Position numbers and translations under genes: made by a program. Source: an uncultured Porphyromonadaceae bacterium (lineage in GTDB: Bacteria > Bacteroidota > Bacteroidia > Bacteroidales > Muribaculaceae). From it: a stretch of DNA of 34,500 bases. The stretch lies in NCBI GenBank assembly GCA_945231345.1, contig CALYOL010000004.1, positions 1-34,500 of the forward strand, given 5' to 3'. A model generated the notes under the pieces. The model was not told the origin of the DNA and did not search any database. It saw only the letters and a program-made list of their open reading frames with translations. Shown piece by piece: positions 14,727 through 17,428 of the stretch (positions are counted from its first letter, which is position 1; each line of letters opens with the position of its first letter).

Positions 14727-15002
14727 ATGAATAATAAAGATTTTATTTCAGCATTATCAGAAGAGTGTGGACTTAGCGCAAACCAAGTGTCGTCTGCTGT
14801 TGAGTCACTAATCTCTGTCATTACCCAAAACCTAAAAAATATGGACAGCGTGGCTATTCCTGGTTTTGGTAAATTTGATGCAATTAAAGAAGACGAAAAA
14901 ATAAGCAAAGACCTATCTACGGGCAAACGTCTGCTTTTACCCCCGGTAATAAACGTTGTTTTTACTCCGGCTTCTGCTTTTATTAAAATTTTTGAGAAAT
15001 AA
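14727..15002 (+). CDS. HU/IHF family DNA-binding protein
   Basis: 91 aa from MNNKDFISALSEECGLS; SVAIPGFGKF and STGKRLLLPP...VVFTPASAFIKIFEK align with the HU fold. Confidence 0.85.
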   Translation: MNNKDFISALSEECGLSANQVSSAVESLISVITQNLKNMDSVAIPGFGKFDAIKEDEKISKDLSTGKRLLLPPVINVVFTPASAFIKIFEK

Positions 15003-15007
15003 TAATT

Positions 15008-16291
15008 ATGAACAATACTATTACTTTACTTACTTTGTGTAAGCAATTGCAAGAAAAGTTACCTTATGAAATAGAATCCGAAAAGTTTATAGCATCATTC
15101 ATCTCAGCAATAAATAAGGCTCTTGCTAAAGATGGTAGTGTTACAATTAATGGATTAGGTCAATTTATTATCTTAAAGTCTGATTCTTTAGATGACAAGA
15201 ATAACGTTGACGCTATACGTTTCATTCCGGATTCTGAATTAGCAGATACGGTCAATCAACCTTTTGCTTTCTTTGATGCTGTTGAGCTCGAAGATGAAGT
15301 TACTGAAGATGAATTGATAAATAATGATACTATAAGTAGCATTGAGTCGATTTCGGGTAAATTGCAAGAAAATGATAGTCAAGCCAAAGTAGTTTTAACG
15401 AATGAGGACAAACTAAATTCATCAGACAACAATGAGATAGACTCTACTCTTGAGGAAATTTTTGATGAAGACATAGAACAACCGGAAAGTCAATCGTCCT
15501 GTGGTTCTATGCAAGCTGCTGACCATAAAAAAACAGATATTGAAGAAGCTGATAACAATAAACCATTTGTAGTTACAATTACAGATAATCAGAATGGCAG
15601 TGATGTAGATAATTCAACTGCAAATACAGAACAGCAGGAAACAACTTCTTTCGATAATCCTTTCAAAGTAGAGGATTACGCAACAGATGATGAGAGTAAG
15701 AATGGGAATAATCCTCCTGAGGAGAATGAACAATATAACAATGACGAAGAGAAAGAAGAAAATAGTAATCTTTCATGGCTTTGGCTTGTGATATTTTTTG
15801 TTGTAGGTCTTGTTATTGGCTGGTGTATTCCTACGTTTATATCAAACCCTACAGTTGTTGAAGAGGTGTTTATATACGATACTATTTATGTTGATAAACC
15901 GATTGTGAAAGATAGCATTGATATATCTTCAAATCCTGTGGTTCAAGAGCCTGCTTTGACCCAAAAGATGGAAGTACAGACCAAAATATCCGAAAACAAG
16001 TCTGAAATTGTAGAATCTCAAACAGATAAAAAAGATGCTGTTATAACAGAGACTGTAAAGCCGAACAATACTCTAATCAGTATGGCATTACGGCACTACG
16101 GACATCGTGATTTTTGGGCATACATTTACATAGAAAATCAGGATAAATTAGGAAATCCTGATATGATTCGTTCAGGACAAGTTCTTGTAATACCACCTGC
16201 AAGCAAATATGGAATAGATAAAAATTCTAAAGAGTCATTAGAAAAGGCAAGCAAGAAATGCAAGGAAATACTAAACAAATATAAAAAATGA
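15008..16291 (+). CDS. HU-like domain, acidic linker, transmembrane helix and LysM domain protein
   Basis: N-terminal divergent HU (FIASFISAINKALAKDGSVTINGLGQFIIL); Asp/Glu/Asn-rich linker; TM LSWLWLVIFFVVGLVIGWCIPTFI; C-terminal LysM-like NTLISMALRHYGHRDFWAYIYIENQDKLGNPDMIRSGQVLVIPP. Confidence 0.82.
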   Translation: MNNTITLLTLCKQLQEKLPYEIESEKFIASFISAINKALAKDGSVTINGLGQFIILKSDSLDDKNNVDAIRFIPDSELADTVNQPFAFFDAVELEDEVTEDELINNDTISSIESISGKLQENDSQAKVVLTNEDKLNSSDNNEIDSTLEEIFDEDIEQPESQSSCGSMQAADHKKTDIEEADNNKPFVVTITDNQNGSDVDNSTANTEQQETTSFDNPFKVEDYATDDESKNGNNPPEENEQYNNDEEKEENSNLSWLWLVIFFVVGLVIGWCIPTFISNPTVVEEVFIYDTIYVDKPIVKDSIDISSNPVVQEPALTQKMEVQTKISENKSEIVESQTDKKDAVITETVKPNNTLISMALRHYGHRDFWAYIYIENQDKLGNPDMIRSGQVLVIPPASKYGIDKNSKESLEKASKKCKEILNKYKK

Positions 16292-16432: not shown

Positions 16433-17428
16433 ATGAACGAAAACGTAGATATCCGCCAACTAAACGATTTAGTTGCATCTAAGAGCAATTTTATAAGCCT
16501 CATAAACAAAGGTATGGAGCAGACCATCGTAGGTCAACGCCACCTTACAGAATCTTTATTAATAGCTCTTTTGAGCAACGGACACATATTATTAGAGGGT
16601 GTACCAGGTCTTGCAAAGACATTAGCAATTAAAACCTTGTCACAGCTGATTGACGCAAAATATAGCCGTATTCAATTTACTCCAGACTTGCTTCCTGCCG
16701 ATGTTATAGGTACTATGATTTATAGCGTGCAAAAAGAACAGTTCCAGGTTAAAAAAGGTCCTATTTTTGCAAATTTTGTCCTTGCAGATGAGATTAACCG
16801 TGCTCCTGCAAAAGTACAGTCTGCACTTCTTGAAGCTATGCAGGAACGTCAGGTTACAATTGGTGATGCATCTTTCCGCTTAGACGAGCCTTTCTTAGTG
16901 ATGGCTACGCAAAACCCCATTGAGCAAGAAGGTACATACCCACTACCGGAGGCACAGGTCGACCGTTTCCTTATGAAAGTCGTAATAGGGTATCCAACAC
17001 GCGAAGAAGAGAAGGTAATTATTCGCCAGAATATATCAAACGAAAAGAAACATATACAAGCACTTCTTCGTCCTGAAGAAATTCTTGAAGTACAAAAAAT
17101 CGTCAGCCAAATTTACGTTGATGAAAAAATAGAGCGTTATATCGTTGACATTGTCTTTGCTACTCGATTCCCCGCAGAATATGGGCTTAATGACCTTACA
17201 AATATTATTTCTTTCGGAGCATCTCCCCGTGCTTCTATCAACCTTGCAAAAGCTGCTCGCGCATATGCATTCCTTCGTGGACGCGGATATGTGGTTCCTG
17301 AAGACGTAAGGGCTGTTTGTCATGACGTAATGCGCCATAGGCTTGGACTCACCTATGAGGCTGAAGCTAACAATATCACTGCAGACGAAATTATCTCTAA
17401 CATTATTGATAAGATTGAAGTACCTTAA
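16433..17428 (+). CDS. MoxR family AAA+ ATPase (first gene of Bat operon)
   Basis: Walker A-like GVPGLAKT, ADEINRAPAKVQSALLEAMQERQVTIG, MATQNPIEQEGTYPLPEAQVDRF; start at internal MNENVDIRQ. Confidence 0.93.
   Translation: MNENVDIRQLNDLVASKSNFISLINKGMEQTIVGQRHLTESLLIALLSNGHILLEGVPGLAKTLAIKTLSQLIDAKYSRIQFTPDLLPADVIGTMIYSVQKEQFQVKKGPIFANFVLADEINRAPAKVQSALLEAMQERQVTIGDASFRLDEPFLVMATQNPIEQEGTYPLPEAQVDRFLMKVVIGYPTREEEKVIIRQNISNEKKHIQALLRPEEILEVQKIVSQIYVDEKIERYIVDIVFATRFPAEYGLNDLTNIISFGASPRASINLAKAARAYAFLRGRGYVVPEDVRAVCHDVMRHRLGLTYEAEANNITADEIISNIIDKIEVP

What the first reader, a model, noticed from the sequence alone, without database searches (positions are those of the whole stretch)
15008..16291. 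HU-like domain fused through an acidic linker and TM helix to a LysM domain: a possible DNA-to-cell-wall tether
The ORF shows a divergent HU/IHF-like N-terminus, an Asp/Glu/Asn-rich linker of about 150 residues, one TM helix and a C-terminal LysM-like fold. In the expected topology the HU part is cytoplasmic and LysM periplasmic, so one protein could link nucleoid and peptidoglycan. HU-like domains fused to TM and peptidoglycan-binding (SPOR-type) domains are, to my knowledge, already described in Bacteroidota, so the general architecture is not new. The LysM version and the tandem HU partner may be less characterised.
Basis: partly seen in the sequence, partly recalled or inferred. Interest (0 to 1): 0.68.

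Follow-up and report, generated by a model that had tools for sequence, protein, structure and literature searches.

The report
HU–membrane–LysM protein with HU partner
The gene encodes an inner-membrane protein with a DNA-packaging-type (HU) domain inside the cell and a cell-wall-binding-type (LysM) domain outside, made together with a small HU partner across much of the Bacteroidales order; it could tie the chromosome to the cell wall, although in this particular species the usual DNA-gripping features of HU are weak.

Summary
ORF 15008-16291 encodes HU-like domain, disordered acidic linker, one TM helix, LysM. Profile searches hit HU/IHF at 1e-10 and LysM at 3e-8; an AlphaFold model shows both folds and a TM helix at 254-278. 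The architecture is conserved: 107 of 110 good genomes of the window's family, about 20 of 120 Bacteroidales families, and a family in another class. The conserved unit is a pair: a small HU gene (14727-15002) lies directly upstream in every split locus testable in the window's family, other Bacteroidales and the other class, and in at least three lineages the two HU domains are fused. A model of such a fusion (pTM 0.83) matches single-chain IHF end to end. The MoxR/Bat operon is a frequent, not constant, neighbour. The DNA-tether reading is only partly supported here: the window's HU2 has lost its DNA-binding arm and is acidic, and HU1 lacks the arm-tip proline; other families keep both. The same genome also has the HU-HU-TM-SPOR version. 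Unexpected: in a sister clade the LysM part lies behind an invariant T10 run at the end of the TM helix, out of frame in 16 of 37 distinct T10 genes, suggesting transcriptional slippage controls wall anchoring.

The parts
14727..15002 (+). HU1: stand-alone HU-family protein, 91 aa, upstream partner
   Evidence: PF00216 4e-19; HU1 adjacent to HU2 in every split locus tested in the window's family, other Bacteroidales and the other class
15008..16291 (+). HU2-TM-LysM protein, 427 aa
15023..15283 (+). divergent HU domain (residues 6-92), beta-arm shortened
   Evidence: profile vs PDB HU/IHF 1e-10; AF2; arm and charge comparison
15284..15757 (+). acidic, predicted disordered cytoplasmic linker (about residues 93-250)
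   Evidence: pLDDT below 50 over most of 108-248; homologs have median net charge -21 over a median of 130 residues
15767..15841 (+). single transmembrane helix (residues 254-278)
   Evidence: AF2 helix 254-278; hydropathy and positive-inside over 142 homologs
16043..16201 (+). LysM-like domain (residues 346-398), expected periplasmic
   Evidence: invariant G365, W370, Y372, E376-N377, P384, P396
16229..16282 (+). C-terminal helix after LysM (residues 408-425)
   Evidence: AF2 model
16433..17428 (+). MoxR AAA ATPase, first gene of the Bat operon (to about 24849); frequent but not constant neighbour
   Evidence: Pfam AAA_3 3.5e-66; MoxR downstream in 25/28 loci of the family, 32/45 other Bacteroidales, 0/27 in f20, 0/8 in the other-class set

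Best explanation
HU1 and the HU domain of HU2 form an HU/IHF-type heterodimer on the cytoplasmic side of the inner membrane. HU2 holds the pair to the membrane through a flexible acidic linker and one TM helix, and to the cell wall through a periplasmic LysM. The module therefore anchors whatever the HU pair grips to the peptidoglycan; ancestrally this is most likely DNA, giving nucleoid or chromosome tethering. Shown by computation: the domains, the conserved two-gene pairing, the natural fusions and the predicted pair fold. Inferred: topology, peptidoglycan binding, DNA binding. In the window's own lineage DNA grip must come mainly from HU1, because the HU2 arm is gone, and may be weak or lost.
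For: HU and LysM folds. HU1 next to HU2 in all 28 testable loci of the family (26 by script; the other two, L023 and L034, have HU1 ORFs), 45/45 other Bacteroidales and 8/8 loci of the other-class set, typically with an ATGA-type overlap. Natural HU1-HU2 fusions in f87 (29 distinct proteins), f30 and f20. The fusion model has pLDDT 89 and pTM 0.83 and aligns over 200 columns to single-chain IHF 2iif/2iie. Positive-inside pattern in 115 of 142. Other families keep a full arm of about 26 residues, an NP or NVxTG tip and basic HU1 (median +6). FimV/HubP show that a LysM-TM-acidic cytoplasmic protein binds peptidoglycan through LysM, and HubP places oriC at the pole (PMC12918733).
Against: The window's HU1 (net -1) and HU2 (net -5) lack basic charge, the arm-tip proline and, in HU2, the arm itself. 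Median HU2 charge in this family is -7. Whole-length Foldseek matches of the HU pair also include ciliary microtubule proteins and Mycoplasma mobile gliding proteins, where HU-like pairs probably act in protein assembly. The alignment to single-chain IHF is only moderate (TM 0.53). The closest LysM matches are Kbp and phage/injection-system baseplates, not wall enzymes. No binding data exist.
Confidence: 0.45

Rival explanations
1. The HU1-HU2 pair no longer binds DNA and serves as a protein-binding scaffold, so the module anchors a cytoplasmic protein complex, not the chromosome, to the envelope.
For: Acidic HU2 and loss of arm and proline in this family; whole-length structural matches of the pair to doublet-microtubule proteins and Mycoplasma mobile gliding proteins; Pfam CCDC81-type HU profiles hit these domains.
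Against: HU1 in most other Bacteroidales is basic with NP-type tips (38 of 44) and HU2 keeps a full arm in 34 of 37 measured.
Confidence: 0.33
2. Membrane-bound regulator: LysM senses wall state and the HU pair changes local DNA architecture or transcription, for example of the adjacent Bat operon.
For: MoxR/Bat operon directly downstream in 25 of 28 family loci.
Against: The pair is conserved without that operon in f20 (0/27) and the other-class set (0/8); a long disordered linker is a poor signal relay.
Confidence: 0.12
3. The LysM-like domain binds something other than peptidoglycan, such as an ion or another protein, so there is no wall anchor.
For: Best sequence and fold matches are Kbp, a potassium-binding protein, and baseplate proteins.
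Against: Strong conservation of the domain and predicted periplasmic side; FimV LysM in a similar setting binds sacculi (PMC12918733).
Confidence: 0.1

Closest known systems
CCDC81-type HU-HU-TM-SPOR proteins of Bacteroidetes (Pfam PF18174/PF18175; to my knowledge Burroughs et al. 2017, not held in the library)
   Same: Two HU domains, one TM helix, C-terminal wall-associated domain; predicted chromosome-to-envelope role
   Different: SPOR replaced by LysM, long acidic linker, HU pair usually on two genes; both kinds coexist in the window's genome (L038)
FimV/HubP polar landmark proteins of Proteobacteria
   Same: LysM in the periplasm, one TM, acidic disordered cytoplasmic region, chromosome positioning by HubP (PMC12918733)
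   Different: Reversed domain order, TPR client-binding domain in place of HU, no sequence relation tested or claimed
HU/IHF nucleoid proteins
   Same: Fold and, in most relatives, the arm motif; predicted dimer
   Different: Membrane-tethered, one subunit divergent; window copies are acidic and arm-deficient

Membership tests
HU/IHF superfamily | HU fold (two helices, beta saddle, C-terminal helix) | tested here: met
   Profile vs PDB 1e-10, AF2, Foldseek prob 1.0
HU/IHF superfamily | Long basic beta-arm with intercalating proline in the window protein | tested here: not met
   Arm truncated in HU2; HU1 tip is KDLSTG, no proline; net charges -5 and -1
HU/IHF superfamily | Dimerisation | tested here: inconclusive
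   Fusion of HU1 and HU2 in three lineages and pTM 0.83 model matching single-chain IHF; no interface measured
CCDC81-type HU-TM-SPOR family | Pfam PF18175 over cut-off | tested here: not met
   16.4 bits vs 35
CCDC81-type HU-TM-SPOR family | C-terminal SPOR domain | tested here: not met
   C-terminus is LysM; the genome's SPOR hits lie elsewhere
LysM domain | Curated Pfam cut-off | tested here: not met
   14.2 vs 20.9 bits
LysM domain | LysM fold | tested here: met
   Foldseek prob 1.0 to Kbp and chitinase LysM; pLDDT mostly 91-97
LysM domain | GlcNAc or peptidoglycan binding | not testable with these tools
   needs sacculus pulldown
FimV/HubP | C-terminal cytoplasmic TPR/FimV domain | tested here: not met
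   No such domain found in the Pfam scan or the AF2 model

The most novel reading that the evidence does not exclude
In a sister clade (family handle f20, seven genera) the gene keeps an exactly ten-T run at the end of the TM helix. In 16 distinct T10 genes, plus one T11, the intact LysM lies in the +1 frame behind that run; in 21 it is in frame. RNA-polymerase slippage there would produce two isoforms from one gene, with and without the wall-binding LysM, making wall attachment of an HU-bearing membrane protein a recoding decision.
Probability: 0.6. Interest if true: 0.75.

Novelty: new variant of a known kind. Interest (0 to 1): 0.6.

Why it matters
How the Bacteroidota chromosome is positioned and whether it is physically linked to the envelope is not settled, to my knowledge. 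A widely conserved protein pair that spans cytoplasm, membrane and wall with an HU pair on one end is a direct candidate and easy to test by deletion in a genetically tractable Bacteroides. The invariant slippage run in the sister clade would add a rare non-mobile, chromosomal case of slippage controlling protein architecture.

Tried and rejected
A link to the Bat operon as the defining context was rejected: the HU pair occurs without it in f20 and in the other-class family. Assembly error as the cause of the LysM frame breaks was judged unlikely: exact T10 in single-contig genomes and across genera, always the same +1 frame, no stop between run and LysM. I first described the g238 genes as HU1-HU2 fusions; on inspection they hold one hybrid HU domain (HU1-like body, HU2-like tail), so they are not counted as fusions. 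Alignments A3 and A5 were not used for modelling: A5 misplaced HU2 rows on HU1, and A3 put the HU1 C-terminal helix in the HU2 block. Literature searches for an HU-LysM protein found no description, and the CCDC81 paper is not held. No slippage-prone run was found in the window gene; its longest T run in the TM region is six.

Full report
OBSERVATION. The ORF at 15008-16291 is 427 aa. In single-sequence scans it sits just below Pfam cut-offs: PF00216 21.6 vs 22.4 bits, LysM 14.2 vs 20.9. With a 26-member alignment both ends become clear: 23 of 26 members match PF00216 at E<=0.1, best 3e-23. The family profile finds HU/IHF structures at 1e-10 and the Kbp LysM at 3e-8. The AlphaFold model has an HU topology at 7-86, disorder over most of 108-248, a helix at 254-278, and a LysM at 346-395 followed by a terminal helix. 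Foldseek returns E. coli HU and LysM domains with probability 1.0, though with weak E-values because the query is multi-domain.

DISTRIBUTION. The window's family (30 genera sampled) has it in 107 of 110 good genomes. In 393 genomes of the order, hits covering both the HU and the LysM part come from roughly 20 of 120 families by my reading of the (truncated) match list; the remaining families match with other, mostly HU-only or LysM-only, pieces. In a phylum-wide sample, 55 of 396 genomes match at 1e-12, mostly one family (f142) of another class, where it again appears as HU1 plus HU2-acidic-TM-LysM.

A PAIR. The small HU1 gene (14727-15002) directly precedes HU2 in the family (26 of 28 by script; the two exceptions have HU1 ORFs and were missed because their start was over-extended), in 45 of 45 other Bacteroidales loci and in 8 of 8 loci of the other-class set, usually with the two ORFs overlapping by four bases. 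In f87 (29 distinct proteins), f30 and several f20 genera the two are one protein, HU1-HU2-TM-LysM. The HU1-HU2 part of one natural fusion, folded with 31 other fusions, gives pLDDT 89 and pTM 0.83 and aligns end to end with single-chain IHF on DNA (TM 0.53). This is the best evidence that HU1 and HU2 act as a heterodimer.

WHAT IT GRIPS. In other Bacteroidales HU1 is basic (median +6) with a proline-type arm tip in 38 of 44, and HU2 keeps an arm of about 26 residues. In the window's family HU2 is acidic (median -7); the window's HU2 has a short arm and net -5, its HU1 net -1 without proline, while the genome's two canonical HUs are +6 and +7. These arm and charge measures use simple patterns and are approximate. 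DNA binding is therefore likely ancestral and uncertain here. The fusion model also matches ciliary and Mycoplasma gliding proteins over its whole length, so a protein-scaffold role is a serious rival.

TOPOLOGY AND WALL. There is no second TM helix in the model, and Lys/Arg are enriched before the TM in 115 of 142 homologs, placing HU inside and LysM outside. FimV/HubP provide a precedent for wall binding through a periplasmic LysM on an acidic-linker protein (PMC12918733).

RELATIVES. The same genome carries a 318 aa CCDC81-type HU-HU-TM protein with a SPOR-like C-terminus (L038; PF18175 5e-15; the SPOR assignment is by eye, since the Pfam SPOR search did not list it). The LysM form is thus an additional member of this kind of architecture, not a replacement.

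SLIPPAGE IN A SISTER CLADE. In f20, 37 of 41 distinct gene contexts with a T run of seven or more at the TM end have exactly ten T; in 21 the LysM is in frame and in 16 it is in the +1 frame, and a T11 case is also +1. Several f20 genes had no such run. The run keeps length ten even where its codon phase differs. Exact T10 runs are otherwise rare, 3 to 20 per genome in 12 genomes checked, and Phe codons elsewhere in these genes are 62% TTT. The LysM-frame peptide after the run has no stop before LysM and in some off-frame genes preserves the residues seen in in-frame relatives, such as MEWQ vs MQWQ and MSAQRKAQAIKNNP vs VSEQRNQQALKNNP. Bacterial RNA polymerase slips at runs of nine A or T (PMC5009743). 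Ribosomal frameshifting or an internal start for LysM is not excluded, and the genomes are related, so counts are not independent. The window gene has no such run.

VERDICT. Real, conserved, a new variant of a known architecture; tether hypothesis plausible and unproven, weaker for this species than for its relatives.

Noticed in passing
L174-L209 and L098, L110-L139 (sister family f20), end of TM helix: Invariant T10 run; LysM in +1 frame behind it in 16 distinct genes, in frame in 21: candidate programmed transcriptional slippage.
   Followed up: partly
L038:937-1893 (-), same genome contig C55: CCDC81-type HU-HU-TM protein with SPOR-like C-terminus coexists with the LysM form.
   Followed up: partly
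L186-L188, L174-L185 (genus handle g238): HU1 and HU2 appear merged into a single hybrid HU domain (HU1-like body, HU2-like tail).
   Followed up: partly
L184 (G580): Run shortened to T9 and most of the LysM region missing: apparent loss of the wall domain.
   Followed up: no
window:1782-2666 (-): 294 aa acidic protein with no significant Pfam or NCBIfam family.
   Followed up: no
L001 and L002 (same genome): Two canonical HU genes, net +6 and +7, separate from this pair.
   Followed up: yes
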